Shown in pieces: positions 14,254-61,504 of a stretch of 64,000 nt of DNA; the first letter of the stretch is position 1, and each line of letters begins with the position of its first letter. The DNA is taken from NCBI GenBank assembly GCA_024741835.1, contig JAENRP010000183.1, positions 1-64,000 on the forward strand. The letters run 5' to 3'. Under the pieces are notes generated by a model, which did not search any database, had not been told where the DNA came from, and saw nothing but the letters and a program-made list of their open reading frames with translations. Position numbers and translations under genes: made by a program. The stretch is from Diplocarpon mali (taxonomy: Eukaryota; Ascomycota; Leotiomycetes; Helotiales; Drepanopezizaceae).

Positions 14254-14501
14254 TATAAAACTGAGGGGAGACAACATAAGAATAGGCCTAAGGGAAGACC
14301 CAAAAACAAGAGGAGGAAGTACTACAAGCGGGCTCTCCTAGACAAGATATTAAGAACAAGTCCTAAGTATAGGGTATATTTAGTACTTATAGTAACGCGC
14401 CCTTATCTCTATATATAAAAGAGGCCCCTTTTATCCTCCTATCGGCCCTGCCCTATTATATGACTTTTATTACGTGATTCATCTATACCTAAGTCTTTAT
14501 A
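14254..14501 (-). repeat. gypsy-3A 3' LTR
   Basis: It is 248 bp, starting TATAAAACTG and ending AAGTCTTTATA on the plus strand. These are the RIP forms of TGTAAAAC and GGTCTCCACA at 62251. It holds a TATATATA-type box near 14404-14415 on the element strand. Confidence 0.92.
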
Positions 14502-14805
14502 TATATTTTAAATAACAAAAGTAGTAGTCCTTACTACTTTTAGTAAAGAATATAAAACAATATAAGTTAAGGCAATAGCATATCAATTATTAGTAAACCC
14601 TAAGTGCGAGAAAACTAATATATTAAAAGGCTTAAACTAGAGCTATATTATTATTAAAGGTAAAAGAAAAAAAAGAAGAGGGTTTTTTTTTTTTAATATG
14701 CTTTTTACCTATAGGCCAGGCCTAGGAGTTAGAAAACGAAACTATTAAAATAAACAAATAGGCTATAGAATCGCAAAAATAATCAAAATAGAACTAACTT
14801 AGGTA
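14502..14805 (-). other. gypsy-3A 3' non-coding zone after X1
   Basis: About 300 bp between the X1 stop and the 3' LTR. It holds a hairpin at 14517-14541 (AAAAGTAGTA stem, 5 nt loop), a long T tract at 14685-14696, and one copy of the 24 bp palindrome at 14707-14730. The palindrome is outside any reading frame here. The same zone in gypsy-3B carries the N gap. Confidence 0.7.
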
Positions 14806-31714: not shown

Positions 31715-31885
31715 TGTTGCGCTATAAGGAGCCTTAGGCACTGAGGCATCTGAGGACTGGCTTATGTAATATACCCCTGAAGTGGCCACGGAGCACTTCT
31801 ATAAAGGGAGCTCAGGTATACAGTTAGAGTAGAATTTACAAGCTTCTGCCACCACTGAGAATCCACCTCTAAATACAGCACGACA
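31715..31885 (+). repeat. copia-1b 3' LTR
   Basis: 171 bp, TGTTGCGC to AGCACGACA. It is the least RIP-altered copy of this LTR and is followed by TSD AGAAC. Confidence 0.94.
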
Positions 31886-31890
31886 AGAAC

Positions 31891-32504
31891 CTAATAAATT
31901 TTCTGCCTCTAATGCTATTTCCCAATAGCTTTTTCATACCTTCTTAGATAGTGAAATGATTTAATACTTATATAGCCTTTGCTATAGGTTAGTATATTTC
32001 AAAGATTTTGCCAAGCCCCTATAGGGCATTATTAGTAGTAATATTAATTATAAAGTAGGTCCGGAAAAGTGTACTATAGGTATTACTTATAAATTGCAAT
32101 AATCTTTTCATATACTTATTCTTCTTATCTCGATTTTTCTAAAATAAATCTATTAAATTAGTATACCTTTAATATTCTTATAGAAATTTTTTATAATCAA
32201 TCCCTTTTATCTTAAGCTTATTCTTAAGAAAATCATCAAAGCTTAAAAATCCTTCTTCTATAGTAGAAATTCTATAGTTCAATACTTCTATAGATGAGTT
32301 TAGGAATACTTACTATTCTATTTTACCTAACGTTCTATAGGTAGTTACTATATCTTCTAATAATCTTAGAGCTTTTCTATCCTATGAAAAGTTACCCTTT
32401 AATATTAGTTTATTATTAGTAGTATTTAAGGGTTTGCTATCCAAAGCTACAACTGATATATTCTTCTTAGGTATGGCTTTCTTACTTAAGCTTGGTAGTG
32501 CTAT
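31891..32504 (-). pseudogene. gypsy-3A X1, N-terminal fifth (unknown protein)
   Basis: The presumed start is the ATA at 32502-32504 (RIP form of ATG), followed by A-L-P-S-L-S-K-K-A-I-P-K-K. This portion aligns with the start of X2: L-I-L-K-G-N-F-S beside the X2 L-I-I-N-F-S; T-Y-R-T-L-G-K-I-E beside T-Y-I-A-L-G-D-I-K; and P-I-A-K-A-I-Q-V-L-N beside P-I-A-K-A-I-Q-I-L-N (X1 residue about 173, X2 residue about 158). The frame is cut by copia-1b near residue 205 and resumes at 17665. Function is unknown. Confidence 0.7.
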
Positions 32505-33110
32505 AATGAATTATTTAATAGGAGGGGTAGTTCTAAATGAAGAGATGATTATTTAAGAAAGATTAACGATATAGGAGGCTTATACTAGAAAAGATTGATA
32601 ATAAAAGATAATAGTAGTAGTACTGGTATTATAGGTCTAGTAGGGTTGTAGAAGAAGTAAAAAAAAGTAAAATCGTAATGCAAGGAGAGGCTTATTTATA
32701 GAGTTTTAGAATCGCGCTAGTATATAAAGGAAAAGTGGGCATAAAGAGGCTGGAGGTAGGAATAAAAGTAGGGCGTAATATATACTAGGACCTATAATTG
32801 GTAAATGATAATTATTAAAGGTGAGGATGACATTTTAAAGGTAAGTATTAGAAAGTTATATATAAAGGAAATAATTAAAGGATAGATTATATAAAGAATA
32901 AAGTAGAGTAAAGAATATATATAGAATAGAATAATAAATAAAGAATAATAAGGTGCTAGTATATAGGAAGTAGATAATCTTAAAAAAAAGATTTAATTCA
33001 AATTCGTAAGTTCTTTAAATAGTATTCTCTAAGGGTAATAGGCTAGATTCTTTAAATTGCTTAACTTAATTATCGGTTCTATTATCACTTTAGAGTCTTC
33101 TTTTCTTATA
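32505..33110 (-). promoter_or_regulatory. X2-X1 intergenic region of gypsy-3A with TATA box
   Basis: 600 bp without coding signal. On the element strand CTATAAATAAGCC sits at 32690-32702, about 195 bp before the X1 start. It is followed by a T/C-rich stretch (TTACTTTTTTTTACTTCTTC), a common arrangement near fungal transcription starts. The box is kept in gypsy-3B at 49110-49122. This suggests X1 may have its own promoter. Confidence 0.5.
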
Positions 33111-36100
33111 TTAGTTCTTACTTCTTAGCGATTTTTCAGCTTTAGGGACCTCTTTTAAAGGATCTTCTATTAGTACCCCTAGATTTAGTAGCCGAAGTTT
33201 ATCCGAACTATCTTATAGGCTAAAGCTAGCTAAGTCCAACCTCACTTGTAGGCTAGGCTTATAAGTCAGTCTTGGCGTTTCTAAGCTTAAGGGTAAAAAC
33301 AGGAGATTGGTTCTTAAATTAAGGTCTAATACTATACTAGCGTCTTAGTTCGTCTCTTTTCCGAATTTTTTTATAATAATATCTTTATTAATTAGTGTAT
33401 TAGGCTCTTAGATAGCATTTATTTCATTATATTATCCTTAAGACTTAAGTCTATAAAGAAGCGACTTAGTGTTTATAATATTCGTTTAGGTATTAATAAA
33501 GGCGTTAAAGAGTTTTTAATTATATTTTATAAAGTGGATTTTCAATTCGTCTTTATTAAGAAGAAATAACTTCTATACTTTAATTATAACTAAGGGGTCT
33601 ATTTAAGAGCATCGACTAATAATGGCTTTAAAAAGGCTATTGCAGTTCTTAAGATGAAAAGCTGCTTTAAAAGGTATAGTAGTTTTGCTTGTATTAATCT
33701 ATTAAGGTACTAGAGGTTACTTTAGAGTAGAGATTGAAAAGATAAGATCAGAGATTTAAATCTTATTTTCTAAAGTATTCTTATTATAGATAGTTATATA
33801 ATTATTATAAAAGGCTATAAAACTACTAGTTCTATAAGAATTATTTAAAAGTATTTTAAGAAGATATCCCTATTTTATTATTACTATAATTAGATTGCTA
33901 TTATTAGTAATAGGTCGCAAGATCTCCTTTTACTTTATTTTTATAGTCATTTGAGCTAGTTGAGATTTTGAATTAAGTGCTTAAGAAGTCTATCGACTTG
34001 TCTTCTTTATAGATAAAATAAGTTTCATATTTGATTAAGAGCCGATCTACCTATTAAGGCTTTTTAAAGCGGGGCCTTATTTAATTAATAGGATCTGATA
34101 ATTTAAGACTTACTTACTAGTAAAATTGACTCGCGGGCCAGGACTGCGAGTAATAATCGGATTTTCTTTATTAGTAGTACTTATATCTTTCTTTATTAAA
34201 ACGACTTAATTATAAAGACTAAGACTAATCAATTAAAGAGGTTTAAGGTAGGCTATAAGCTAATAGGCTCCTTTACTTTTTACTATTATAATTAAAAGGT
34301 AGAGTCTATAATATATCCGAAGGACTTATTAAGTGAGATTAAATATTATATTATAAAGAAAATAAGAAGGTATAAAGGTTGCGTTATCTATAAGGCAGAA
34401 GTGATAAAGGTATATCTCTACTTCTTATCTTATAATAGAGAGGAATATATTTATAAAAGTACTATTATTAGTAGTAAAATTATCGGTTAAGAAGCGGCAT
34501 TCGAAGGGTTTAGGCATTACAATTGACCCTTCTTCTTCTATTTCCTCTTACTATTTATTACTTAATAATATTAAAAAGAAGGAATTGTTCTATTTAATCG
34601 ACTCTAATGCCTTTAAGGCTTTAGGATTAGCCTTGAATTTTATAGCACTTAAAGATGCCTCTATTATTAATAGGTTAGATTTGCATATCTTTAAAGAGAT
34701 AAAGAATTGATTATTAAAGTAGATTAGAAAAAGATCAATATCTTTTATTATATAGAGAAGTTTAAGGTATTTAATAGTTTTATTAATATTAAAGCCTTTA
34801 TAATTAAGACTATAGTAAACTGAAAGAGAGCAAATATAAAGGTCGCAAAGTCTTCTCCCTTTGATTCTTACGCTAAGAAGATACTATTAAAAGCGAGTTT
34901 TTATTATAAAGGACACTTGAATATTATATTATTCTTTAAGCTTAAAGTTAAGAATGACTAATTAAGGCATATTGCTATAATTATAAATATCCTAATTAAT
35001 AGATTCCTCTTTGCATTCTCTTTCTTATAAGATAAAATAGTCTTACTTAGTATTTAAAAGACTAAGTTCTTAACTTTTATAATTATTAAAGAATTAAATA
35101 ATATTTATAAAGGCGAACTTATTTAAGATAAGCTATTGAATCTATTTAATAGCTCTTTTAATTATCTTTAGAGCAATAGGAATAGGGTCTTCCCTTATAT
35201 TATTATTTTTAAAATAGTTGTATATAAATATAAAGAAGTTAAGAACTAGCTCCTTTAAGTTATTAAGGAAGGAGTCTAATTAAGCGCGCAATCCTTTAGT
35301 TTTAAATTGCAAATTAGCTAAGGTGGCTATTAAATAATCTATCCTTTTTAAAGGTTAAGCTAAAATAGGTCGTTTAGCTAAAGGAAAGTCATTTAAAGAT
35401 TTTGAAAATTCTAAAGAGGCTGCGCTAAGTGTTTAAGCAGTTTATTTAATAGCGGTTTCTAAAATTATTTCAGTAAAAGGGAAGTTAAGTTTAGTTTTAA
35501 AATTCTTACTTCTAACTCTTAGTTTAAGACTATAAGTCAAATTATAAGGTTTAATACTTATTATATCTTTAAGCTAAAAGGCGAATTTCAAGGTAGGTTT
35601 AATTATAAATAACTAATTCCCTTCTTTATTATTAAAGAAATCTTATTTAAACCTTAGTATAAGAGTCTAGTTCTCTTTTAAAATAAGCAAACTATAAGCA
35701 GAAACGCAAAGCCTTAGTATATTAATAATAGTACTATTAAGTAAGGTAATATCTATAGCCTAATTTGATCTTTTTATAGCTCTATTAGCTATTATAAGTA
35801 CTATATTAAATAGGCCTATAAATCTGCGATTGCGAATTCGATTGCCTTAGAATTTTGCTACTTCTTTTTAAATAATAAAGAAATTAAGAATCTGAATAGC
35901 TTTAGCTATAGGAGTGTTTTCCTTAAGAATTTTTAATAATACTCGCCTTCTATTATTAAAATCAATATTTATTAAGAAGCGCAAACGAAATAGGAGTCCT
36001 TTTTTATTAATGGCTAAATTATCTAGTTATTGAATAGATTCTTCCCTTTTATCTTAGTCTATTTCAAAAGTATTAGCCAAGGTTATATATTAATCTGCGT

Positions 36101-36383
36101 CAGCTAAGAATTCCTCTTTAAAGATTCTCTTTAGTCTTAATTCTTTAGTTAAGAAGTCGTTAAATTAGAGAATTCCAGGGGCCACTTAGGTTGAAAGGTT
36201 ATTAATAGCATTCGCGTAAGCTAAAAGGAGTTTTTATTACTTTATATCTCCTAAGGCTATATAAGTTGATTTAAAGCTCTTTAATAATATAATAGCTCTA
36301 CTATCTTAAGAGAAGTTTATAATTAGTATTTATTTATCCCCTATTGCAGTAGATAAAACCATTTATAAGTTCTTTAAAGGCAT
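33111..36383 (-). pseudogene. gypsy-3A X2 (unknown protein, paralogue of X1)
   Basis: ATG at 36381-36383 opens M-P-L-K-N-L. The frame can be followed for about 1090 codons with RIP-type stops to a TAA at 33111-33113. I recognise no family. Landmarks: P-I-A-K-A-I-Q-I-L-N near residue 158; G-N-R-I-R-N-R-R-F-I near 197; Q-Q-V-L-R-I-Y-Y-R near 685; N-A-L/T-L-I-N-K and K-F-G-K-E near 990; and a charged C-terminus. Palindrome-encoded peptides sit near residues 282 (35514), 745 (34128, T-R-S-P-G-P-R-V) and 1040 (33244, L-T-Y-K-P-S-L-Q-V), matching three of the four sites in X1. The length equals copy B exactly (3273 bp). No membrane or signal segment is evident. Confidence 0.72.
34128..34151. repeat. 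24 bp palindrome, best preserved gypsy-3A copy
   Basis: It reads GACTCGCGGGCCAGG then ACTGCGAGT, a near-perfect inverted repeat around a central A. Other gypsy-3A copies start at 14707, 15131, 15952, 17183, 17369, 33244, 35514, 36779, 38212, 40179, 40340, 42257 and 43266. The half-site consensus is ACTCGCAGGCC with RIP variants. Confidence 0.88.
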
Positions 36384-36690
36384 ATTACTTATAAAAGATA
36401 GGAAGTATAAATAAGAGAGTTTAATAGGGTATAAGAATTAAAAGGGTATATAAGTTGCAATAGGTTTACTATATATATATTAAGGAAATTGGACTTTTTA
36501 TTTATTATTTAAGGAAAGTAATAGGAATACTATAATTAAAGGCTAATATTAAAAATATAAAATAAGTCAAAGTAGATAAGAATTTAAGGTAATCTTAAAA
36601 GATCTATATCTTAAATAATAAAGTAGGCAACTTTGTTAAAAATGTAAAAATAAGGATTAAAGGAAGGTAAGATAATTGATAGGCTAGGAA
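36384..36690 (-). other. gypsy-3A pol-X2 intergenic region
   Basis: About 300 bp with no coding signal. On the element strand a TAATATATATATAG run at 36466-36482 lies about 85 bp before X2 and could be a TATA element. It is kept in gypsy-3B near 52888-52902. The evidence is weak because the whole region is TA-rich. Confidence 0.35.
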
Positions 36691-39600
36691 ATCGTTTAAT
36701 ATTCCTATTTGCGTTCTTTAGATATTTTAAGAATAATGACTTAAGGTTGCGATTAATTAGGTATTTTAATATTTTTTACTTATAGGATTAGCTTATAGGT
36801 TAAGTTAGAAAAATCTTAGTCTTCGTCTAAGGGTTCAAAATTGCTTATATTACTATCGGTTCTTATAAAAGATTCGGAAGTTGTATCAATTTCTAATTCG
36901 TCTTTTAAAGGGAATAAGGTCTAGTCGTATTAATAAAAGCACTTTAATCAGTTGGCTGCAAAGGTTCTTTTAATATCGATTCTATTAAGTTCCTAAAGAG
37001 AATAGTATCCCTTTTCTTTCTACTTAAATTTAACCTTAAATAAGCTAAGCTATTAATAGTCAAGTTTAGTATCTGCTAATATATTAATACTTCTTATAAT
37101 ATTATAAACTAGGATAAGATTATCTTTTTAAATAGGGTAAGTCTTAAGTACTTTAAAAGCAGCCTACGCTTCCTTAGCTTTTTCTTAATATTGTTTCTTT
37201 TACAAAATAATCTCTTTTATATTTATATCTTAGAGCTTAAGTTATTAGTATCTTATTATAAGTAAATCGGAATAGTTCTAAATTTGACTATAGTTGAATA
37301 ATCTTTAAATAGGCTATTAAGATTTAAAAGGGAGCTATGCCTCTTTATTATAGATAAGGAAGAATAGTATAACTCTAATTAGTTTATAGATTATCGTTTG
37401 ATAAGTAAAGAGTATTTTATAAAAGCGTTTTATCTAATCCTTAAATCCTTTGCAAGTAACTTTAGATAGACTATTAAAAATATTATAGTATCCTTATTTT
37501 ACTACTCTATTAGCTTTTGAGTTATATACTAAGATTTGAACCCGCTTAATGCTATATTTTCGCAAGAAAGCTTTAACTACTCCTTTGTTTTTAAGGCTTC
37601 TATTAATAGTTAGTCTTTTAAAAAGTCTATAGCAATAGACTACGTCTTCTTAAAGGAACTTTGCAATAGATTTAAAGTTAGCAGATCTTAAAGGTTATCC
37701 TTTAGGCTATCTTAATAGGTCTTCCTTTACTAGAATAAAATATATTATCCTATTCTTAGTAGTTAATACTTATATAATATTAAGGCTGACTTTATAAAAA
37801 AGGTCTAATATTTAGGTTAAGAATAGGAGATTCTCCTTATAATTAAGTTTTCATTTCTAATAAAGGATACAGCTTTTTATAAAAGCTTTATAATCCTTAA
37901 AAGAACCTTTTTAAAAGAATTTTCTTAAAAGCCGATAGTAAGTAGACTTAGCTCCTTAATAGCCTATCTCCTTATAAATATCTTAAATAGCCCTAGCTTA
38001 CAATTTATTATTATTTAAATAGAGTTATATAGGAAATAAGTTATTACTCCTTTTAAATAACTGCCTTCCTTATATTAGATAAATTAAAGCTTTAGCTTTA
38101 AACTTTTGAAAATCCTTAAAAGAAACTATCTTTAATCGTTTAAGTATAATTAAAAATTTTATAATTTCTTTAGAATCACTTAAGTAATTAGGTAATAAAA
38201 TCCTTTTATTTGACTCGCGGGCTAGGCTTGCAAGTTAGGTCCCTTTAAGGCAATATATTAATAGATAATTAACTTTATTCTTTACCTACTTATTAATATC
38301 TATTTCGTCTTCTTTAATCAAATTAAAGGGGTAGGGACGAATTCTTCTTAAAAGGCTATTAGCGGCGGTATTTTTTATTCTTAAAATGTATTTGACTTTA
38401 AAGTCCATTAGTCTTATCTAAGCGATCTATTTTATTAGTAAAGCTCTTAATAGGTCGCTTATAGCTCTATTCAATTATTCTACTAGCACTTTAGCATTAG
38501 TTTTAAGGATGAAGTAAATGCTATAAAGGTTGCTTCTTATCTTTTTCATTACCTTTAAAGCGCCTTTACATTCCTATTTAATAGTATTATACTTTATTTC
38601 TATTAGATTTTAAAGACTACTTTTAAAGTAAGCTAAATGTCTTTTCTATTAGCTATTAGCTTATTAAAAGATAGTACTTTATTTAATTAAGCTTGCGTTA
38701 ACTATTAGTATAATTAGCCTAGCGTCGGCTCTATAGTCTATTTTAATTAGATATAGCGCTTTAAGCAACGCTTACTTTAGTTATTTCATAGCCTTTATTT
38801 AAGGTTCCTCCTATTGAAACTTAGCCCCTTTCCGAAATAAGGTATAAATAGGTACTGCCTTTTTAGCGAAATCCTTAATTTAAATGCAATAGTATACTAT
38901 AAAACTAATAAACGCGCGAGCTTCTACTACGTTATTATACCTCTTCTATATATCAATTTTAAGTACTTTAGCCCTTTAAGGACTTCGGCCATTGGAATCA
39001 GTAATAAAACTAATAATTTCTATCGATAGAAGATAGTATTATAACTTTAGACTAACTATCGCTTTTGTCCTTTCGAATTATATAAGTACCTAGTTTAGGT
39101 TTTAAATATATTCTATTATAAATCATTATATACTAAAGAGAACTTCTTTATAGTTATAGAATAATCTGAATCCTTTTACTCTTATATTATTTATATAAGA
39201 AAGTATAATATTAGGTATATAATCTACTAGTATTTTATAGATTATTTAAATAAATTGAGCAATTGAATTTATAGCCCTTTAAGGTAATCTTATTATCTGA
39301 AGTAGCTTAAAAGGGATTTGAATTACTATTATATCTTTTAATTTAATATTAAGAATAAATTAGTTATATTTAAAGAAGAAGTTAATAAAAGAGCTATAGG
39401 TTAATCCTATAAATTTATTTAAGAACTTATCTATATTTAAAAGAATATTAGTATCCTTAATAGTTATTTGGTTTATCTCTATTACTACTATTATTAGTTT
39501 ATAAATTCCCTTTTCTTTCTTAATAACTAAGAACCATTTATTCTTATAAGGGCTATTATAGAATTTGAGAATGCCTTATTTTAGCTTATCCTTTAATATT

Positions 39601-42600
39601 TCGATTACCTTTTCTTAAAGAGCTTTATAAACTCTAAATGTTTTCTCTTATTAGGCTTTATAAGGTATTATCTTAATCTTAATATAAGGCGTAACCTCTT
39701 CTTAAAGCTAATTAAGTTCTATCTAATCAAAAGCTAAGGCGTCCTTTTGATTTATTAAGGTTTTATAAAGTAGTTCGCGTTTTTACTTTATTAGGTTATC
39801 TTTAATTTTTAATATATCGAAATGCTCTTTTATTAGCCGATATCTAATAGGTTTATTAGAAAATCTGCTTATAATAAATTTATCGAATTTGCCACTTAAT
39901 TTTAAAGGTCGAAGCTTCTTATCTTATTTAAACTAATCATCTAATCCTTTAGGCTTTAAGCTATTAGAGATTCCCTAATCTATTAATTATACTTTATCTA
40001 CTTTACTTTTATATATAATTCGAATATTAGCTAATACTATACTTTTCTACTTCTTTCCTTTTTTATTAAATCTTATAAAACGGTTTGAATTTTCTTTTTA
40101 AAAATAAATAAAAGATTTTCTAAATTGTTAATTTAAAGTATATAAATAGAAATATTATTAATAATTTTATTATTTTTCACTTGCGGGTCTGGCTTATAAG
40201 TGGTTTTTAGGTTTTTTAAAATAATTAGTAAATTATCGAAATTTGTAAAACGAACTCTCTTTTCTACCTTATTTTTCTTTTTTCTTAATTATTAAGCTAA
40301 TAAAACGCCGATTGTACTATTCTTTAAAATTCCAGATTTGACTCTTAAGCTAGGATTGCGAGTTAAATCGCTATTATTTAAAATCGGCAAACTTACCTTC
40401 CTTTTGCTATAACTCCTTATTAAGTGCCTTCTTTTACTAGCATTAAGCCTAGCCCTTATATTAGCTAATTATTTCTTAAAACCTTATTTTAAAATTCGGC
40501 TATATCTCTTATAATAACTATCTATCCTTTTAAAAATTGATCTATATTTTAAAAACTAGCTTTTATAAGACTATCTTTAAGATAGTTAAATATTAGCTAA
40601 GATTTTAAAATAAAAGGCATTTTTAAAAGAATATTATTTAAAGAATTCTTTATTATTAAAAAGTTAGTATAATTAACGATCCCTTTAACTTTAACCTTTA
40701 CGTTTTTTACCTATTTATTAAAATTGTATTTCAATCTAAAGATAGTCGAATATATAAGAAGTCGATCGCTAATAATTATTAATTAAGCTATTTCTACTAC
40801 TTTTCTAATTATTATATTAACTTTTGAATTATAATTAATCAAAGCCTTTGCTTTAACTAATTCTTCTATTAAATAAATAATAATAGGGCTTTTTATTACA
40901 ACTATTAAACAATTTCAATTAATATTCTAAGATATTAAGGCTATTGCTATAATATTATAATACCTTTAGGTTCCTTTGTCTTTTGCAATCTAAAGATATT
41001 TGATTAAGGCTAAGTGCTTTTTAAAGTTCTTTTATATTCTAATTTCCATTTCTTTATTATTATTCAAATCTTTAAAGGTAATTAAGATATGCTTTCTTAG
41101 CACTTTATTAAAGCGTTTAATTAAACTAAATAGGTCTTTAAATATAAGGTTAATTTATTAAGTTATAATATTCTTTATAGCTTTCTCTATTACAATTGAA
41201 CTAGCGTATTTATTAATGAATTTTTCCTATTTTAATATCTATCTCTTTCGCTTAAGGTCAGGGGTCTGCGTAATAACTTCAACTTCTTAATCTTTAAGCT
41301 TAAAGCTATCTTTATCTATTATATCTTTAATCAATTTATCTACTATATCGGCTTTATCCTTATCTACTATAGTTTTAGACTATTAGGTATCTTTTAATAT
41401 TTGGACTTTATATTAAGATTCTTAAGTTGCATATGCTGATTTCTGGACTTTAGCTAGTTTTATTAGTATTAGTAGAGTAGAAGATCTAAAAGGACACTAA
41501 GAATTCTAAGGGTTCTTAGATATAGAAGCAATATTAATATTAGTTGAAATATTATTATTAACTTATCTTAAGATAGAGATGCCTTTAACTTTTATAGCTA
41601 TTTAATTAGAAGCTAAGTCCTTAAGAACTCCTTTAAGTAGATTGCTAATTGGACTTATATATATATAAGTTAGAATTTTAGCATTTATATCTATAATATA
41701 CTATCGTTCGATTAAATTCTCATCCTATTTTATATTATATATTATTATTTAAATAGTCTATAATTATAAGTGATTCTAGTGCTTTTTAATAGGGATAGCT
41801 TTTAGCCTAGGATCTTTAATATAAAGTATCCTATACTTATTAATATATATAACCCTTATATTAATAAAATGTTAGAAAAGAGGATATTCATTATAATACT
41901 TATATAAAAGGCAATTGGGTTCCTTATTATTGCAAAAGTTGCAAGTTAGTCTTCTTCTATTACTATTTTCTTAATACCTTATAGTATTAATATTAGCAGA
42001 GTGCTAGTTAGGATTAATTTCTCCTTCTTTAATTAACTATTATATTCTTATATTAGCTGGTTATTCCGAATGATAAAAAGGAGGAGTCTAATAATAAGAA
42101 TTACTAGGTTAGCTTATAGTAGTTGAGTTTTGCCTATTATTAAACTAAGGAATATGCTATTTTTCTTATAAGAGATTATTAATCCTAGTTTCTAAGCTTT
42201 AGATTTAGAGTTTTATAAATTAGGTCTTAAGTTCCTTAATCCTAAGGTTGGATCTTACTCTTAAGTTAGGCCTGCGAGTGAAAGGTATGACTACTAAGTT
42301 CTTCTTTATCTCCTTTATAACTTCTAAAGCCTTTGAGTATTCTTAGACTAGGCTCTTAAGGTCTTTAGTATAAGAGGGAGTAAGGGCTTTTTCTTACTCT
42401 ATAGTATTAATAGTTCTCTTACTAAGATCTGATTTTAAAGTAAAGGCTAAGAATTCCTTAAATAAGGCAAAGGTTATAAGGTCTTGCTTATTAATCCTAA
42501 AATGCTTAATGATCTTATTTTAAAGGCTAGTAGGTAATCTAAGTAAGAAAAGGCGGCCTCTTTCAACTTCGCTAAGTATTTTCTAGCTGATTAAGGTATT

Positions 42601-43245
42601 TAATATATAAGTAAAAGTCCGATAGTAGTTCTTAAGTTCCTTAGGAGTCTAGGTGATTAGAACAAATTCCTTTAAGAAAGTTAGAGTATTGCAAATCTAC
42701 TATTTATCAAATTTATAGAATTTAGACTTAAGAGCTTTAATAAGGAGTTCTTATAAATTATATATTTTCTATTTAAGAAGGGATTTAATAATATCTTTAC
42801 TTATATAGTTATAGTAATAAGGGAGCTAAGAAATCATATCTGCTTATAAAATATTAAAATCGTAATAAGTTTCCTTATATTGCTTAAGGAAATTAGTAAT
42901 ATTAGCTCTTATAAAGTGAGAAGCACTAAGGGAACTAAGGAAAGGAAAGTGGCTAGTAATAGCCTTAAATGTGGCTATTATCGTTTTATACTAATTATCT
43001 AAGTTAATAGAATCTATAGAAGGCAAAAGGGAAGCTTTAATATTGCAAGATTAATTGCTAAAAGGAGTACTTCGAAATTCAAAAGGGCTTAAAGAACGCT
43101 TAGAATCCGAGTTAATCTTAAAGTGATTAAGATAAGTTTAAAAAGATTTAGATAAAGGGTTAGTGAAAAGTTTAAAATTGTTATTATTTTTAGTATTTTC
43201 TAATATTAATATTAAAAAAGTAGGTAGTAGTCTTAAGTTGTTTAA
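36691..43245 (-). pseudogene. gypsy-3A gag-pol
   Basis: The Gag core (F-I-G-A-N-I-T-N-F-L-K-Q-Y) is near 42900. A Cys-rich C-N-F-C-x6-C motif is at about 41919-41946. A protease-like A-L-I-(N for D)-x-x-S-K-V-N is near 40830-40860. Reverse transcriptase runs from about 39750, with K-G-I-L-K-F, N-K-W-F-L-V-I-K-K-E, and a region resembling the fungal G-V-K-G-P gypsy lineage. RNase H at 38990-38330 has N-A-S-L for D-A-S-L, K-R-E/Q-C-K-G-A and N-S-L-L-R-R. Integrase at 37760-37150 contains K-E-D-L, E/L-N-K-G-V-V-K-A-F and Y-N-S-K-A-N. No chromodomain was seen. Palindromes fall at the Gag start, Gag C-terminus, protease/reverse transcriptase linker (two), RNase H/integrase border and pol C-terminus. 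Confidence 0.88.
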
Positions 43246-43465
43246 GGACGTCTTTTTATCCTCTTACTTATAGGCTAGGCCTAGGAGTAAAATTTCGGAT
43301 TCTGCTAAAAGTTTAATCTACGTTTCTTAAGAGATTTTAAGTAGATGCTAAATAGCTAATAGGAGTATTATGATTAATCGCAATAAGATAAAGTTTACTT
43401 AATTAAGGACCAATTTCTAAGATAAGGTTTATATATAAGATTCTTCTTAGCCTTTAGGCTAATTC
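43246..43465 (-). other. gypsy-3A leader, part next to gag
   Basis: This is the left part of the leader, cut by copia-2b at the sequence GGCTAATTC. The leader continues at 61500. The palindrome copy at 43266-43289 lies at the edge of gag and is not clearly in the Gag frame. Confidence 0.65.
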
Positions 43466-44822: not shown

Positions 44823-44862
44823 GGTCCGCTGGCCTACTAGCAGCTATTACTTAGTATTATAT
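44823..44862 (+). other. copia-2b deletion join and fragment of 3' zone
   Basis: 40 bp matching copia-2a 3207-3166 inverted (TCCGCTGGCCTACTAGCAG). It follows gag directly and so marks the internal deletion. It ends at the gypsy-3B insertion, where the TSD ATAT occupies 44859-44862. Confidence 0.85.
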
Positions 44863-45108
44863 TATAAAACAGAGGGGGGACAACACAAGAATAGGCCTAA
44901 GGGAAGACCTAAAAACCAGAGGAGGAAGCACCATAAGCAGGCTCTCTTAGACAAGATATTAGGAATAAGTCCCAAGTATGGGGTATATTCAATACTTATA
45001 ACGACGCGCGCTGTCTCTATATATAGAAGATGGCCCTTTTATCCTCCTACTGTCCTACGCCGATTATATGATATATATTATAAAACCTATCTATCTTAGG
45101 TCTTTATA
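44863..45108 (-). repeat. gypsy-3B 3' LTR
   Basis: 246 bp, TATAAAAC to GGTCTTTATA. On the opposite strand it carries an open frame with K-N-R-P-K-G-R-P-K-N that is largely kept in all four gypsy-3 LTRs. Confidence 0.92.
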
Positions 45109-45447
45109 TATATCTTAAATAATAAAAGTAGTAGCCTCTACTACTATTAATAAAGAATATAAAATAATATAGGTTAAGGTAATAGTATATCAATCACTAG
45201 TAAACCCTAAGTGCGAGAAAACTAATATATTAAAAGGCCTAAATTAGGGCTATATTATTATTAAAGGTAAAAGGAAAAAAAAGAAGAGTTTTTNNNNNNN
45301 NNNNNNNNNNNNNNNNNNNNNNNNNNNNTTTTATATATGCACTTTTTACCTATAGGCTAGGCCCAGGAGTTAGAAAACGAAACTAGCAAAATAAACAAAT
45401 AAGCTATAAAGTCGTAAAAACAATTAAAAATAGTACTAACCTAGATA
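45109..45447 (-). other. gypsy-3B 3' non-coding zone with assembly gap
   Basis: It holds the hairpin equivalent at 45127-45150, an unresolved run of N at 45294-45321, and a palindrome copy at 45348-45371. In gypsy-3A the gap position corresponds to a T homopolymer of about 12, so the gap is probably a homopolymer or assembly artefact. Confidence 0.75.
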
Positions 45448-48400
45448 TCAATTTTCCTTAGTTCTCTTTAAAGGATAGGAAGAACTATTACCAGATAATA
45501 CTCTCTTTATAAAGCGCTTACTTTTTCTTAATAGTTTACTATTAGTATTAGAAGAGTCTGGTCTTGGTATTATAAGAGCTTTAGTATTTCGTAAAGATGC
45601 TAGTATAATTTAATAGCTTTTACTAATAAGGAGGGAGACTTGTATTATAGCATTATTATAATTATCTTCTTTATTATTATTATCATCCTTTGGAAAGTCA
45701 TCTGCTATTAAGGGAGACGCAGTAGGAGATTCTATAGCCACAACCTCCTTAGCCTTGGCTTTCTTTAGATTAAGTCGCAGGCTGGGCCTAGGAGTCGTAT
45801 TAAGGGTTTTTATATAAGGCTTTTTAATGCTATACTTCTTAAGAAGAATTATCTTATCAATCATATTATCAGCCTTAATATTATTATTAATGCCTTTCGT
45901 CTTAGCCTAGGATTTGTCCCTATACAGTTATAGCTTTAAGTATTAAATTAGTTTCTAAGTATAGGTAAAATTATTAAAAAGTTCTTACTTATACTTCTTC
46001 AAATAGGTTATTAGCTAACCTATATCTTTGGATAGCAACTCTTTCATTATTATTACCACTAATAGATCATTCTATAGTTGTCTCCTTATAAGTGCCTTTA
46101 ATAGTGGGCTACCTTTTATTATACTAAGTATTATACGAAACTTGGCTGACGATTCCCTAGTAATACTCTATCTTATAGTGCTCGGTTTCTTTATACAAAT
46201 GGACTTAATATAAAACTCATCTAGGTCGGCACCATTTTCAAGTGAGTTATTACTAATAACTTCTATATAGTTGTTACTAATAGTAAGGAACCTACCTTTT
46301 CCAGGCTCTTTTGCCAGACTTTAAGTTAACGAATGTTCCTTATCTTATAAATATAAAGAATAAGGTAGTCTTATTAGAGATATATTCCTTAAGTAGTATC
46401 CTAGTCTTAGTATTCAATTCTTTCTACTGTATTGCGTTTTATACTAGATTTAGTAAGACCTATTAAGTATTCTTTAAGCGCAAGAGGGTAAAAGCTAATA
46501 ATTTATAGGATTTTTCCTATATAGCAAATTCTTTAGTTGATTGTTTTACTATAGGTATTATATAGTAATCGATAGTCCTGCTATTAGGGGAGCTAACCCG
46601 CAAGCTGGGCCTAGGAGTTAGCCTTACGAATCTTATATTAGCGTTAATCTTAGTAGAAATAACTCTCGAATAGTAGTTAATACCTATAAACTATATAGCC
46701 TTAGGATACGCTACTAGCTTATGTAAAGAATTATAGTAAGTTAATAGAGCATTAAGATATAGCCTATAGTATATCCTTAAAGTCTGTTGTATTAAACTGT
46801 AAGTTATATTATAAAAGAAGGTAGAAGGAGGGGAAGGCTTCTTATTTAAGATTCGGAAATAGTGCTTATATATTTCCATTTCCTCTTATGCTAATGTTAA
46901 AAATGAATTCTTTCCTTAAGAACTATAACTATGCGTGCGAATTATACTTAAGAATGCGTAGCTAAATAATTTAAGTATATTTAAGAAACCCTTAGTATAA
47001 AGCGATATTAAAGTATCCTTAGTTAGTATCGTTTTATACTAGGCAAGAGTCTAAGCGATATTATAGAATAATTTCAAAGCCTTAAGTGCTACTCTAAACT
47101 TAAAGAAACCTAGCGATATATCTTTTTTAATCTAATTGGCTATTCTATTACTAATAGCTACTATCGCATGATTTCTAAGGTATAATAAGAATAATCTTAG
47201 ATTAGGAGCAATGTAAAATTTATAAAGGTTAGATGATACTTCTTTGTTAGTAATGCCTATTAATGCTAGTCCGTAGTATAGTGCATATTATCGTTTATAA
47301 AGGGCATAAAATTTCTTAAAATAGAAGTCTTTAAATATCCTTATTATAAATTTACTTAAGCGAGTTTTCATTTCTGGTATTACTATAACTTTAAATTTAT
47401 TATTATACTATAGTATCATCTTAACGTTAAGAGGGACTTAATAATATTCTATAGAGATTATTGTTATAGTATCTTTAGGCTTCTCCTTAAGCATATAGTA
47501 GTCGCCCTTTGATTTCTTATAGTCGATAAAGAACTATATAATATTATCTAAAGAGAATTCGTCTTATTATAGTTTTATAATCTATTTAACAGCTCTTGCT
47601 ATTACCTTTTATACTAATAAAATATCTCCTTGGTTTTCCTTTTTCAAACGCTTTATTATAGACTTATAGAATTTTAAAATAAACTTTTACAAATCTTTAA
47701 AAAAGGTCTATACGATATTAGATATATCCTTTTTAGTATTATTAAAAATTTTTAATATATTAGTAATAGGGCTATCTACTTTATCTGTCAGCTTATCTTC
47801 TGAGTCTATATTATTACATGTTCTGACCTATAGGCTAGGCCTACGACTCGATTTACTTGCTATTAGTATTTAAGGTATTCGGGGCATTTCTAGGGACGGT
47901 AATTCAAACTCGTCTAAGTTAGAAGATAAGTGGTTAGGCTAGTATTCTACTTAAGCTTTAAGTATTATAAGCACCTTATACTTAAGGACTTCTTTATCAT
48001 ATGCTTCTTCCACTCGTAGGCCGGGCCTATAAGTTAAGTTGGGCTCGTTTATTAATTCGGCTACTAATAGTAGTAGCTTTGCGGCGGCAGGGATAATAAA
48101 TTCCCATTTCTCTGTTTTATTATCAAAGTAGTTTATAGTATACTCGGCGAGATAAATCATCTTTTCTTTTATAATAAGTAGACTGTATTATAATTATTAT
48201 AAGCCGAGCGTGTCTAGAACTATTTGATTAAGGAGTGTAAAATTATTATACTAGGCGGGGCTATCTTTTATAATCTAAATAGTAGAGTATATAATAGTAC
48301 TTAAGAAACCTATAAATTTTCTACCTTGCGTACTATTTCCCTATAGCTTTTTTATACCCTCTTAAATAGTGAAATGATTTAATACCTATATGGCCTTTGC

Positions 48401-48922
48401 TACTAATTAATATGTCTTAAAAATTTTGCCGAGCCCCCGCAGGGCGTTATTAGTAGTAATATTAGTCATAAAGTATATTTGAAAAAGTGTATTATAAGTA
48501 TCGTCTATAAATTATATCAATCTTTTCATATACTCATTTTTCTTATCTTAATTCTTTTAAAATAAATCAATTGAATTAGCATACCTTTAATACTTTTGTA
48601 AAAACTTTTCTTAATTAATACCTTTGCCTTAGAGTTCCTTATTTAAGAAATCATCGAAATCTAAGAATCCTTCCTTAATAGTAGAAATTCTATAGTTAAG
48701 CACCTTAATAGATGAATTTAGGAATACCTGCTATTCTATCTTACCTAACGTTCTATAGGTGCTTATTATATCTTCTAATAATCTTAGTGACTTACTATCC
48801 TATAAGAACCCTCCCTTTAATATTAGTTTATTATTAGTGGTGCTTAAGGACTTGCTACCTAAGGTAATAACCGATATATTCTTCTTAAGTATAGCCTTTT
48901 TACTTATGGTTAGTAGTGCTAT
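45448..48922 (-). pseudogene. gypsy-3B X1 (unknown protein)
   Basis: The unbroken counterpart of X1 in gypsy-3A is 3475 bp, about 1158 codons, from ATA at 48920-48922 to TGA at 45448-45450. Longest clean stretches read M-I-Y-L-A-E-Y-T-I-N-Y-F (48160 leftward), M-E-I-Y-K-H-Y-F-R-I (46879 leftward) and M-I-D-K-I-I-L-L-K-K (45864 leftward). One frameshift is visible near 46320, where copy A reads straight through. Palindromes at 48012, 47826, 46595 and 45773 encode L-T-Y-R-P-G-L-R-V, R-R-P-S-L, L-T-P-R-P-S-L-R-V and T-T-P-R-P-S-L-R-L, near residues 296, 358, 768 and 1042. No known domain is recognised; a structural or nucleic-acid-binding role would be a guess. Confidence 0.75.
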
Positions 48923-49530
48923 AATGAATTATTTAGTAGGGGGAGGGTAGTTCTAAATAAAGAGATGATTATTTAAGAAAGATTAATAATATAGGAGGCT
49001 TGTATTAGAAAAGATTGATAACAGAAAGATAATAGTAGTAGTACTGCTAGTGCTAGTATTTAGTAGGATTATAGAAAAGGTAAAAAAAAGTATGATTGTA
49101 ATACGGGGAGAGGTTTATTTATAGAGATGGGAATCGCGCTAGTATACAAAGGAAAAGTAGGTATAAAGAGGCTGGAAGTAGGAATAAAAGTGGGGTATAA
49201 TATATATAAGGACCTATAATTAGTGAATGATAATTGTTAAAGGTAAGGATAATATTTTAAAGGTAAGCGTTAGAAAGTTGTATATAAAGGGAATAATCAA
49301 AGAATGAATTATATAAAGAGTAAAGTAAATAAAGAATATATATAGAATAAAATAATAGGTTAAGAATAAAGAGGTACTAGTATATAGAAAGTAGATAATC
49401 TTAAAAAAAATTCAATATCTAATTTGCAATCTCTTTAAATAGTTTTTAAAGGGGGGTAGACTATGATTTTCCAAATCGAATCGACTTAATTATTAGTTCT
49501 ATTATCACTTTAGAGTCTTCTTCTCTTATA
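48923..49530 (-). promoter_or_regulatory. X2-X1 intergenic region of gypsy-3B with TATA box
   Basis: Counterpart of 32505-33110. On the element strand CTCTATAAATAAACC sits at 49110-49124, about 190 bp before the X1 start. The TATA core is intact in both copies although surrounding bases differ. No coding signal seen. Confidence 0.5.
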
Positions 49531-52500
49531 TTAGTTCTTATTTTTCAGCGATTTCTCAACTTTAGGGACCTCTCTTAAAGGATCTTTTATTAATACCCTT
49601 AGATTTAATAACTGAGGTTTATTCGGACTATCTTATAGGCTTAAGCCAGCTGAGTCCAACCTTACTCGCGTGTAGGCTTATAAGTTAGTCTTGGCGTTTC
49701 TAAGCTTAAGGGTAAAAACAGGGGATTGGTTCCCAAATTAGGGTCTAATACTATACTAGCGTTTCGGTTTGCCTCTTTTCCGAATTTTCTTGCAATAATA
49801 CCTTTATTAATTAGTGCATTAGGCTCTCGGATAGCATTTACTTTATTGCGCTATCCTTAAGACTTAAGGCTATAAAGAAGCGACTTAGTATTTATAACGT
49901 TCGTCTAGGCCTTAATAAGGGCGTTAAAGAGCTTTTAATTATATTTTATAAAGTGGATTTTCAATTCGTCTTTATTAAGAAGAAATAACTCCTGTACTTC
50001 GATTATAACCGATGGATCTATCTAAGAGCGTCGACTAATAATAGCTTTAAAGAGGCTATTGCAATTCTTAAGATGAAAAGCTGCTTTAAAAGGTATAGTG
50101 GTTCTACTTGTATTAATCTATTAAAGTATGAGAGGTTACTTTAAAGTAAAGACTGAAAAGATAAAATCGGAGATTTGAGTCTTATTTTTTAAAGTATTCT
50201 TATTATAAACGGCTGTATAGTTATTATAAAAGGCTATAAAACTACTAGTCTTATAAGAATTGTCTAAAAGCATTTTAAAAAGGTATCCCTATTTTGTTAT
50301 TATTATAATTAGATTGCTATTATTAGTAATAGGTCGCAAGATCTCCTTTTGCTTTAATTTCGCGGTTATTTAAGCTAGTTGAGATTTTAAATTAAGTACT
50401 TAGGAAGTCTATCGACTTGTCTTCTTTGTGGATAGAGTGAGTTTTATATTCGATTAAGAGCTGACCTACTTATTAAGGCTTTTAGAAGCTGGCCTTTATC
50501 TAATTAGTAGGATCTGATAATCTAAGACTTACTTTCTAATAAAATTGACTTGCGGGCTAGGACTATAAGTAAAAATCGGAATTTCTTTATTAGTAGTACT
50601 TATATCTCTCTTTATTGAAATGACTTAATTGTAAAGACTAAGGCCAATTAATTAAGGAGGTTTAAGGTAGGCTATAAGCTGATAGGCTCTTTTATTTTTT
50701 ACTATTATAGCTAAGAGGTAGAGTCTATAATGTATTTGAAGGACTTATTAAGTGAGATTGAATATCATATTATAGAGAAAATAAGAAGGTATAAAGGTTG
50801 CGTTATCTATAGGGCAGAAGTAATAAAGGTATATCTCTACTTCTTATCTTATTATAAAAAGGAATATACTTATAAAAGCATTATTATTAGTAGTAAAATT
50901 GTCGGTTAGGAAGCGGTATCCAAAGGGTTCAGGTATTATAATTGACCCTTCTTCTTCTATTTCCTCTTACTATTTATTACTTAATAATATTAAAAAGAAA
51001 GAATTATTCTATTTAATTGGCTTTAATGCCTTTAAGGCTTTGGGATTAGCCTTGAATTTTATAGCACTTAAAGATGCTTCTATTATTAATAGGTTGGATT
51101 TGCGTATCTTTAAAGAGATAAAGAACTGATTATTAGGGTAGATTAGAAAAAGATCGATATCTTTTATTATATAGAGAAGTTTAAGGTATTTAATAGTTTT
51201 ATTAATATTAAATCCTTTATAATTAAGACTATAGTAAACTAAAAGAGAGCGAATATAAAGGTCGCAAAGTCTTTTCCTTTCGATTCTTATACTAAGAAGA
51301 TACTATCGAAAGCAAGTCTTTATTATAAAGGACACTTGAATATTATATTATTCTTTAAGCTTAAGGTTGAGAATGACCGATTAAGGTACGTTGCTATAAT
51401 TATAAATGTCTTAATTAATAGATTTCTCTTTGCGTTCTCTTTCTTATAAGATAAAATAGTCTCGCTTGGTATCTAAGAGACTAGGTTCTTAACTTTTATA
51501 ATTATTAAAGAATTGAATAATATCTATAGGGGCGAACTTGTTTAGGATAAGCTATTGAATCTATCTAATAGCTCTCTTAATTGTCTTTAGAGCAGTAGGA
51601 ATAAGGTCTTCCCTTATATTATTATTTTTAAAATAGTTGTATATAAATATAAAGAAGTTAAGAACTAGCTCCTTTAAGTTATTAAGGAAGGAGTTTAAGC
51701 GAGCGTATAATCCTTTAATTTTAAATTATAAATTAGCTAAAGTAGCTATTAAACGATCTATCCTTTTTAAAGGTTAAGTTAAAATAGGTCGTTTAGCTAA
51801 AGGAGAGTCCTTTAAAGATTCTGAAAATTCTAAAGAGGCTGCGCTAAGCGTTTAGGTAGTTTATTTAGCAGCGGTTTTTAAAATCATTTTAATAAGAGGC
51901 AAGTTAGGTCTAGTTTTAAAATTCTCATTTCTAACTCTTAGTCTAGGACCGCGAGTTAAAATTATATAGTTTAGCACTTATTATATCTTTAAGTTAAGAA
52001 GCGAATTTTAAAGTAGGCTTAATTATAAATAACCAATTCCCTTCTTTATTATTAAAGAATTCTTATCTAAACCTTAGCATAAGAGTCTAGTTCTCTTTTA
52101 AAATAAGCAAATTATAAGCAGAAGTGCAGAGCCTTAGCATATTAATAATAGTGCTATTAGGTAGGATAATATCTATAGCCTAATTTGATCTTTTTATAGT
52201 CTTATTAGCTGCTATAAGTACTGTATTAGATAAGCCTATAAATCTGCAACCGCGAATTCGATTGCTTCAGAATTTTACTACTCCTTTTTAAATAATAAAG
52301 AAATTGAGAATCTAAATAGCTTTAGCTATAGGAGTATTTTCCTTAAGAATTTTTAATAACACTTGCCTTCTATTATTAGAATCAATATTTGTTAGGAAGC
52401 GTAAATGAAATAGGAGTCCTCTCTTATTAGTGGCTAAATTATCCAGTTGTCGAATAGATTCTTTCCTTTTATCTTAATCCGTTTTGAAAGTATCGGCCAA

Positions 52501-52803
52501 GGTTATGTATTAATTTGCGTTAATTAAGAATTCCTCTTTAAAGATTCCCTTCAGTTTTAATTCTTTAGTTAAGAAGTTGTTAAATTAGAGAATTCCAGAG
52601 GCCACTTAAGTTGAAAGGTTATTAATAGTATTCGCATAAGCTAAAAGGAGTTTTTATTACTTTATATCTCTTAAGGCTGCGTAGGTCGATTTAAAGCTCT
52701 TTAATGATGCAATAGCTTTGCTATCTTAAGAGAAGTTTGTAACTAGTGCTTATTTATCCCTTATTATAGTAGATAAAACCATTTGTAAGTTCTTTAGAGG
52801 TAT
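49531..52803 (-). pseudogene. gypsy-3B X2 (unknown protein, paralogue of X1)
   Basis: Colinear with 33111-36383 and exactly the same length, 3273 bp. The start ATG has become ATA at 52801-52803. Stretches such as K-N-K-T-Q-I-S-D-F-I-F-S and K-V-N-A-I-R-E-P-N-A-L-I-N-K-G read cleanly between RIP-type stops. Palindromes at 51933, 50547 and 49664 match those of copy A; the last has lost a base or two, giving L-T-Y-K-P-T-R-E. A stop-free plus-strand stretch at 50899-51129 is an antisense shadow. No domain is recognised; paralogy with X1 is the main information. Confidence 0.72.
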
Positions 52804-53110
52804 ATTACTTATAAAAGATAGGGAGTATAAATAAGAGAGTTCAATAGGGTATAAGAATTAAAAGGGCATATAAGTTGCAATAGGTTTATTATATATATAT
52901 TAAGGAAATTGGACTTTTTATTTATTATTTAAGGAAAGTAATAGGAATGCTATAATTAAAGGCTAATATTAAGAATGTAAAATAAGTCAGAGTAGGCAAG
53001 AATTTAAAGTAATTTTAAAAGATCTATATTTTAAATAATAAAGGAGGCGTCCTTACCGAAAATGTAAAAGTAAGAATTAGAGAAAGGTAGGATAATTAAT
53101 AGGCTAAGAA
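52804..53110 (-). other. gypsy-3B pol-X2 intergenic region
   Basis: Counterpart of 36384-36690. It contains the TATATATATT run near 52890-52902. Nothing else seen. Confidence 0.35.
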
Positions 53111-59100: not shown

Positions 59101-59650
59101 CTAGAGTATTGCGAATCTACTATCTATTAAATTCTTAGAATTCAGACTTAAGAGCCTTAATAAGAAGTTCTTATAAACTATACGTTTTCTATTTAAAGAG
59201 GGACTTGATAATATCTTTACTTATATAATTATAGTAGTAAGGAAGTTGAGAAATCATATCCTTTTATATAATATTAAAATTGTAATAAGTTTCCTTATAT
59301 TGCTTAAGGAAATTAGTAATATTAGCGCCTATGAAGTAAGGAGCGCTAAGGGAACTAGGGAGGGGAAAGTGACTAGTAATAGCCTTAAATATAGCTATTA
59401 TCGTTTTATACTAACTATTTAAGTTGATAGAATCTATAAAGGGCAAAGGAGAAGCTTTGATATTGCGAGATTGATTGCTAGGTAAAGTACTTCGAAATTT
59501 AAAAGGACTTAAAGAACGTTTAGAATCTGAGTTAATTTTAAAGTAATTAAGACGAGTTTAAAAAGATTCGGATAAAAGGTTAGTGAAAAGTTTAAAATTA
59601 TTATTATTTTTAGTGTTTTCTAATATCGATATTGAAAAAGCAAGTAGTAG
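53111..59650 (-). pseudogene. gypsy-3B gag-pol
   Basis: Same layout as 36691-43245. Gag core is near 59330-58800, with T-Y-S-P-D-L-G-V-R-S from a palindrome at 58677. Protease-like A-L-I-D-Y-N-S-K-V-N near 57245-57275 keeps the catalytic Asp that copy A lost. Reverse transcriptase spans about 56190-55420, RNase H about 55410-54760 and integrase about 54220-53580. Palindromes lie at 59686, 58677, 56760, 56600, 54632 and 53198. Length and order fit a full Ty3/gypsy polyprotein of about 2180 codons. The frame is broken by many TAA/TAG codons. Confidence 0.87.
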
Positions 59651-60634: not shown

Positions 60635-60638
60635 ATAT

Positions 60639-61499: not shown

Positions 61500-61504
61500 A
61501 ATTC

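What the first reader, a model, noticed from the sequence alone, without database searches (positions are those of the whole stretch)
31891..36383. Giant Ty3/gypsy family (about 15.7 kb) with two long accessory frames, X2 and X1, that are paralogues of unknown family
Seen directly: both gypsy-3 copies have gag-pol followed on the same strand by a 3273 bp frame (X2) and a 3475 bp frame (X1). X1 and X2 are colinear. They share Y-x-x-L-G-x-I near the start, P-I-A-K-A-I-Q at residues 173/158, G-N-x-I-R-x-R-x-F-I near 207/197, Q-Q-x-L-R-I-Y-Y-R-L-Y-L near 714/685, and palindrome-encoded peptides near 296/282, 768/745 and 1042/1040. No retroelement domain or family I know fits either frame. Inference: an ancestral cargo gene was captured by the element and duplicated in tandem.
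Basis: partly seen in the sequence, partly recalled or inferred. Interest (0 to 1): 0.87.

Follow-up and report, generated by a model that had tools for sequence, protein, structure and literature searches.

The report
Fungal retrotransposon carrying twin unknown genes
A large, mutation-riddled family of jumping genes, probably in a relative of the apple-blotch fungus, carries besides the usual copying machinery two long sister genes of an unrecognised protein family that were kept by selection while the element was active and whose job is unknown.

Summary
Two copies (copy 2: 60645-44860, minus strand; copy 1, split by nested insertions: 62247-61500 + 43465-31888 + 17664-14251) are 15.7-15.8 kb Ty3/gypsy elements: gag-pol, then X2, then X1, then the 3' LTR. 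X1 and X2 are full-length paralogues (35% identity over 1064 aa between open Diplocarpon coronariae relatives; profile E 2e-126). The stops are RIP damage: 63 of 64 in copy 1's X2 lie where the open relative has Q, R or W. Transversions, which RIP does not make, fall mostly at third codon positions, so the frames were selected. Architecture recurs: 35 of 42 scored X2 copies have a listed integrase upstream, 34 of them at 296-307 bp. X2 resembles neither the element's gag nor pol; Pfam, NCBIfam and PDB gave nothing credible. 'Captured host cargo' is unproven; the homologue search was weak. New here: between the two copies, leader-gag-pol-X2 differ by 0.7% transversions but X1-3'UTR by 5.7%, and U3 differs too; X1 falls into at least four recombining lineages while X2 is uniform. 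A 23-bp palindrome recurs about 13 times per element and encodes TRGPGPRV-like peptides in X1 and X2. Both structure predictions failed. Function is inference: probably a nuclear regulator of the element.

The parts
44860..60645 (-). Element copy 2, 15.8 kb, with both LTRs (249-260 bp: 60645-60386 and 45120-44860)
   Evidence: self-comparison; within-copy LTRs differ by 1 transversion and 28 transitions over 249 bp
61500..62247 (-). Copy 1, 5' LTR and leader
   Evidence: 84.7% identical to 59881-60630
31888..43465 (-). Copy 1, gag-pol, X2 and the 5' end of X1
   Evidence: 87.5% identical to 48307-59885
14251..17664 (-). Copy 1, rest of X1, 3' UTR and 3' LTR
   Evidence: 77% identical to 44860-48307
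56900..59600 (-). gag and start of pol, copy 2 (approximate)
   Evidence: low-stop frame; no Pfam hit in this frame; gag label inferred from position
54847..55221 (-). pol RNase H domain, copy 2
   Evidence: PF17919 E 1.1e-6 (just under its cut-off) and PF17917 E 5.9e-6 (above its cut-off), stops read as X
54262..54432 (-). pol integrase zinc-binding domain (H2C2), copy 2, downstream of RNase H
   Evidence: PF17921 E 7.3e-8, above its cut-off
49489..52803 (-). X2, copy 2, RIP-damaged, with frame breaks
   Evidence: tblastn of P0006 in 3 blocks
45451..48910 (-). X1, copy 2, RIP-damaged, frame break near 46300
   Evidence: tblastn of P0002/P0003
33069..36383 (-). X2, copy 1: 1105 codons, no indel against P0006, 64 stops
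   Evidence: tblastn of P0006 1-1105 in one block; stops tallied
31872..32504 (-). X1 N-terminal part, copy 1, cut by the nested insertion 17666-31883
   Evidence: tblastn P0003 1-211
14809..17664 (-). X1 remainder, copy 1
   Evidence: tblastn P0003 206-1157 in one block
48012..48034 (.). Palindrome, X1 residue about 297
   Evidence: scan score 19.6; 0 purine/pyrimidine mismatches
47826..47848 (.). Palindrome, X1 residue about 359
   Evidence: score 15.2; 1 mismatch
46596..46618 (.). Palindrome, X1 residue about 769
   Evidence: score 16.0; 1 mismatch
45773..45795 (.). Palindrome, X1 residue about 1043
   Evidence: score 16.4; 2 mismatches
50548..50570 (.). Palindrome, X2 residue about 745
   Evidence: score 17.6; 1 mismatch
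51934..51956 (.). Palindrome, X2 residue about 283 (weaker)
   Evidence: score 14.8; not within 2 mismatches
33244..33266 (.). Palindrome, X2 residue about 1040, copy 1
   Evidence: score 18.4; 0 mismatches

Best explanation
This is a Ty3/gypsy retrotransposon family with order LTR-gag-pol-X2-X1-LTR. X2 and X1 are separate accessory genes on the gag-pol strand, made by duplication of one ancestral gene about 1100 codons long. They were selected as proteins while the element moved, and are destroyed by RIP in the copies examined (shown). Between the two window copies gag-pol-X2 is nearly uniform while X1 and the U3 are much more diverged; X1 exists as several older lineages that appear to recombine with the backbone and with each other, which fits template switching during reverse transcription (pattern shown, route inferred). 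Proposed function (inference, about 0.3): X1/X2 are nuclear, non-membrane proteins that act on the element's own RNA or DNA, for example to counter silencing or control transcription, with X2 the constant and X1 the variable partner.
For: Fixed architecture: 35 of 42 scored X2 copies have a listed integrase upstream on the same strand (34 at 296-307 bp, one at 596), and 19 of 55 scored X1 copies have a listed X2 451-664 bp upstream; no opposite-strand neighbour within 1.5 kb (the lists are the best-scoring slices of 290-771 candidates, so both counts are lower bounds). X2 spans 3306-3315 bp in 42 of 42 scored copies. Open relatives: P0006 (X2), P0003 and P0002 (X1); P0003 and P0006 carry adjacent locus tags 006393/006394. 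Stops at Q/R/W: 63/64 and 35/36 against P0006, 35/37, 8/9 and 10/10 against P0003. Transversions by codon position: X2 65:45:247 in 25 matches, pol 20:7:56 in 7 (some fetched loci overlap, so these are not all independent); X1 between lineages 0.25-0.40 per-site ratio of positions 1+2 to 3 in 15 pairs. Mosaic: 73/10998 transversions in leader-gag-pol-X2 against 199/3498 in X1-3'UTR, p 2e-66, using 29 of 33 bins. No strongly hydrophobic 19-residue segment (maxima 1.06, 1.06, 1.26; first 60 windows at most 0.42). Basic C-terminal ends such as RKRRRLR and PPKRTK look like nuclear signals (recalled pattern, not tested).
Against: Nothing here measures expression, localisation or binding. Both structure predictions failed (mean pLDDT 29.8 and 41.1). 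Two of the four public X1 proteins (P0004, P0005) lack internal stretches and P0002 departs at its C-terminus, so only P0003 and P0006 are clearly full-length, and they are gene models. X1 and U3 types are not tightly linked: L014 pairs a copy-1-type X1 with a copy-2-type U3, and L015 has its own U3, which weakens the idea that X1 reads its own U3. In one search the X2 pairs have few transversions (3-17) and their position ratio scatters from 0 to 1.38, so recent constraint on X2 is poorly measured there. One search's X1 tally (534:490:1481) includes gapped, diverged matches.
Confidence: 0.5

Rival explanations
1. X1/X2 are envelope-like glycoproteins, as in insect errantiviruses, that let the element leave the cell.
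For: Position 3' of pol on the same strand; a variable X1 on a constant backbone recalls variable surface proteins.
Against: No hydrophobic segment that could span a membrane and no hydrophobic start in P0002, P0003 or P0006 (hydropathy only, no dedicated predictor); basic C-termini.
Confidence: 0.04
2. X1/X2 are extra structural proteins, a second gag-like or capsid-associated pair.
For: Large size; a helical N-terminal third in the very low-confidence model.
Against: No similarity to the element's gag region by BLASTP (P0006) or profile (X1+X2); no Pfam gag or capsid hit.
Confidence: 0.2
3. X is a host gene captured by the element and then duplicated.
For: The X1-X2 duplication is clear; capture of a gene by a giant gypsy element is known (orchid AlkB element, abstract of PMC9289625).
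Against: No homologue outside Diplocarpon was found. That search is too insensitive to exclude one.
Confidence: 0.3
4. X1/X2 are the remains of a second, unrelated retroelement nested in the first.
For: Nesting is rife in this window, and complex fungal elements made by multiple insertions are reported (passage of PMC3248453).
Against: Constant spacing to the integrase in 35 of 42 copies, the same position inside the LTRs in both window copies, and no match to gag or pol.
Confidence: 0.02

Closest known systems
Ty3/gypsy LTR retrotransposons (Metaviridae) of filamentous ascomycetes
   Same: LTRs, gag-pol, RNase H before integrase, RIP-damaged copies
   Different: about 6.8 kb of extra coding sequence in two paralogous genes between pol and the 3' LTR
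Retand elements of plants (PMC11963269, abstract read)
   Same: Long pol-to-3'LTR region with an extra protein of unknown, perhaps DNA-binding, function
   Different: Retand extra ORFs are antisense and 97% of clusters have TRP28; X1/X2 are sense, in tandem, and match no domain
Phalaenopsis AlkB-carrying giant gypsy elements (PMC9289625, abstract read)
   Same: Very large gypsy element with an added ORF
   Different: There the added domain is a recognisable RNA demethylase; X is unrecognised
VANC anti-silencing proteins of Arabidopsis VANDAL transposons (PMC5735166, passages read)
   Same: An element-encoded protein with conserved and variable parts, and a short motif repeated within the element; analogy only
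   Different: VANDALs are not LTR retrotransposons; VANC motifs are tandem and mainly non-coding; here palindromes are dispersed, also coding, and also occur in another Ty3 family without X
crapaud of Podospora anserina (PMC10787394, abstract and section 12 read)
   Same: RIPped fungal LTR element whose 5' LTR half comes in diverged subfamilies that do not follow the internal regions
   Different: No X-like genes are mentioned in what I read; here the variable part includes a whole gene

Membership tests
Ty3/gypsy LTR retrotransposon | Paired LTRs flanking the element | tested here: met
Ty3/gypsy LTR retrotransposon | pol order RT-RNase H-integrase | tested here: met
   RNase H upstream of integrase H2C2 in both copies (copy 1 below the Pfam cut-offs, E 0.0004-0.0014); the RT domain itself did not score
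Ty3/gypsy LTR retrotransposon | Primer-binding site after the 5' LTR | tested here: inconclusive
   Candidate sequence seen; no tRNA identified, and the 11 hits are probably other element copies (inference)
Envelope-bearing element | Signal peptide and transmembrane segment in the 3' ORF | tested here: not met
   hydropathy only
VANC-like anti-silencing protein | Sequence similarity to VANC | not tested
   No VANC sequence was compared; Pfam gave nothing credible
VANC-like anti-silencing protein | Binds a motif enriched in its own element and removes silencing | not testable with these tools
   A repeated palindrome exists; binding cannot be tested here
Retand TRP28 ORF | ORF antisense to gag-pol | tested here: not met
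   X1/X2 lie on the gag-pol strand

The most novel reading that the evidence does not exclude
X1 and X2 are paired sequence-specific regulators that recognise the 23-bp palindrome dispersed about once per 1.2 kb through the element and protect or activate element chromatin: a fungal LTR-retrotransposon counterpart of VANC self-recognition, in which X1 diversifies by recombination while X2 stays constant.
Probability: 0.08. Interest if true: 0.85.

Novelty: new variant of a known kind. Interest (0 to 1): 0.55.

Why it matters
A selected, duplicated pair of unknown 1100-residue proteins, held in fixed position in dozens of scored copies (hundreds of unscored candidates), points to a function the element needed inside a RIP-competent fungus; fixation of extra domains in LTR elements is considered rare (abstract of PMC9289625). 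The constant-X2, variable-X1 mosaic gives a handle: what differs between X1 lineages should show what X1 interacts with. Open relatives in a public Diplocarpon coronariae assembly make the protein testable without touching the damaged copies.

Tried and rejected
Six-frame ORF search: nothing of 150 aa or more, because of RIP. The plus strand of the finding read as noise. A first Pfam run used wrong frames for gag-pol and gave nothing; corrected. EF-G-binding_N hits to three X1 proteins (E 0.024-0.21, below cut-off) and phrog_2934 to X2 (E 0.036 over 17 residues) rejected as chance. AlphaFold models too poor to use, so no fold search was run. Positive selection on X1: not supported, ratio 0.25-0.40. 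Tight X1-U3 coupling: contradicted by L014 and L015. Primer tRNA: unresolved. Rfam at gathering thresholds: no match in the window. Literature: searches listed nothing that I recognised as a description of X1/X2 or this family; I judged by titles and abstract starts except for the six papers opened, and the library lacks most subscription papers. Of PMC11527701, PMC5735166 and PMC3248453 I saw passages only. Rows dropped or repeated before counts: one search leaves out 4 of 33 bins (60500, 49000, 45000, 44500: LTR parts and the step itself); one search holds repeated loci (of 24 X2C rows 16 are unique places, of 29 X1M rows 22, counted by hand from contig coordinates); one search dropped matches under 600 bp or above 99.5% identity and identical rows only.
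Full report
SETTING. The window is part of contig C183 of an unnamed 49.4 Mb genome in 676 contigs. It is a nest of AT-rich, heavily mutated repeats: no ORF of 150 aa or more, TpA/ApT 1.51 across the window. The proteins found for X1 and X2 are from Diplocarpon coronariae, the apple-blotch fungus, so the host is probably Diplocarpon or a near relative (inference; not tested with a host gene). A published D. coronariae assembly reports 34% repetitive elements (passages of PMC11527701).

ELEMENT. Self-comparison shows two copies of one minus-strand element. Copy 2 is 60645-44860. Copy 1 is split by nested insertions into 62247-61500, 43465-31888 and 17664-14251. Within each copy the two LTRs differ by 1 transversion and 28 transitions over 249 or 246 bp: almost all change since insertion is RIP-type. 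Pol carries RNase H and then the integrase zinc domain in both copies, strongly in copy 2 and below the Pfam cut-offs in copy 1; this is the Ty3 order, though the RT domain itself did not score.

X1 AND X2 ARE REAL GENES. With stops read as X, X1 of copy 2 finds four Diplocarpon coronariae proteins (57-63% identity) and X2 of copy 1 finds one (61%, 1105 aa, six member sequences). P0003 (X1) and P0006 (X2) have adjacent locus tags. Two of the four X1 models lack internal stretches and one has a different C-terminus, so P0003 and P0006 are the clear full-length pair. In five stretches of the window copies the stops sit on Q, R or W of the open relative in 63/64, 35/36, 35/37, 8/9 and 10/10 cases (the third stretch gives 37/37 against P0002 and 34/36 against P0004). 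In the same genome 42 of 42 scored X2 places span 3306-3315 bp and all 42 hold stops; 623 candidates were seen and only 42 scored, so I cannot say that no open copy exists. Transversions, which RIP does not produce, fall 65:45:247 on codon positions 1, 2, 3 of X2 (25 matches) and 20:7:56 in pol (7 matches). Copies share ancestry and some fetched loci overlap, so these are not independent events.

PARALOGY. X1 and X2 align over their whole length: 35% identity over 1064 aa, profile E 2e-126. In 40-column windows identity is highest (about 0.5) near X2 residues 146-185, 403-442, 641-719 and 919-958 and lowest (about 0.2) at 305-362, 601-640 and 999-1038. X2 (P0006) matches neither the gag region nor pol of the element, and the X1+X2 profile does not match gag. 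Pfam, NCBIfam, PHROGs and PDB sequences give nothing credible.

ARCHITECTURE IS FIXED. Of the 42 X2 copies scored, 35 have an integrase listed upstream on the same strand, 34 at 296-307 bp and one at 596. Of 55 X1 copies scored, 19 have a listed X2 451-664 bp upstream. No opposite-strand neighbour lies within 1.5 kb. The lists are best-scoring slices, so these are lower bounds.

A VARIABLE 3' HALF (new). Counting transversions only, copies 1 and 2 differ at 73 of 10998 sites from leader to X2 but 199 of 3498 in X1 and the 3' UTR (p 2e-66; 29 of 33 bins used; sites are not strictly independent). The step lies between X2 and X1. The LTRs agree: of the 11-14 transversions between copies most (for example 12 of 14, 8 of 11) fall in the first 100 bp, the U3 side. 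Across 24 rows (16 unique places) the X2 C-terminal segment differs by at most 1.7%, whereas the X1 middle segment, 29 rows (22 unique places), forms four clusters with most between-cluster pairs 2-7% apart. L005/L012, L007, L015 and L036 change company between the N and middle segments of X1, which points to recombination within X1. Purifying selection on X1 is indicated by position ratios of 0.25-0.40 in 15 pairs; X2 pairs have too few transversions to tell (3-17, ratios 0 to 1.38). X1 and U3 types are not tightly coupled. Among the public proteins returned, X2 forms one 90% cluster of six and X1 four clusters, in keeping with this.

PALINDROME. A 23-bp palindrome, common form ACTYRYAGGCCNGGCCTRYRAGT, gives 80 exact genome sites with 0 in the reversed control; a GC-richer form gives 505 within 3 mismatches, again 0 in the control. 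In the window a scan gives 39 hits at score 12 or more against 2.8 per shuffle and 7 in each of two reversed or complemented controls; by purine/pyrimidine pattern, 23 sites with at most 1 mismatch against 0.15 per shuffle and 0 in the reversed pattern. Copy 2 has 13 at score 14 or more. In P0006 and P0003 all seven sites read as TRGPGPRV-like peptides; in pol the one at 54633 lies in another frame (read by eye). Of 21 loci fetched around palindromes (the first listed, not a random sample; L043 and L044 overlap), 17 are covered by this element, 2 by another Ty3 family of this window and 2 (L041, L042) match nothing here. That other Ty3 family, without X, carries them at 26126, 26171 and 28073-28163. 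So they may be small insertions tolerated in linkers, or binding sites; the data do not decide.

MECHANISM. Shown: selected, duplicated, sense-strand accessory genes in fixed position, with X1 diversified and apparently recombining. Inferred: nuclear, acting on the element's own nucleic acids, because there is no membrane segment, the C-termini are basic, gag similarity is absent, and comparable extra ORFs elsewhere are proposed or shown to act on silencing or RNA (PMC5735166 passages; PMC11963269 and PMC9289625 abstracts). I put about 0.3 on that function.

STATUS. New variant of a known kind: a Ty3/gypsy element with a new accessory gene family. My paper searches listed nothing that I recognised as describing it, in an incomplete library.

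Noticed in passing
window 13 sites in 44860-60645; also 26126, 26171, 28073, 28118, 28163: A 23-bp palindrome dispersed through this element and through another Ty3 family, three of them at 45-bp spacing at 28073-28163; read by eye, no forward frame of its GC-rich form holds a stop.
   Followed up: partly
window 49000-44860 against 17664-14251 and 32504-31888; loci L005, L007, L014, L015, L036: The X1 and U3 parts of the element come in several diverged, apparently recombining lineages while gag-pol-X2 is nearly uniform between the window copies and X2 in 16 places.
   Followed up: partly
window 17666-31883: The insertion that splits copy 1's X1 is itself compound: a copia-type reverse transcriptase on the plus strand near 21.9-22.5 kb and a Ty3-type RT/RNase H on the minus strand within 24.6-27.6 kb, with 92% identical ends at 17666-17834 and 31715-31883.
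   Followed up: no
window 43468-44824 and 60635-61495: Copy 2 appears to sit inside another repeat with ends matching at 43474-43661 and 61311-61499, itself inside copy 1: three levels of nesting (inferred).
   Followed up: no
window about 45280-45330: A short run of N between X1 and the 3' LTR of copy 2.
   Followed up: no
L041 and L042: Palindrome-bearing loci with no match to this window; L041 has no Pfam domain in six frames.
   Followed up: partly
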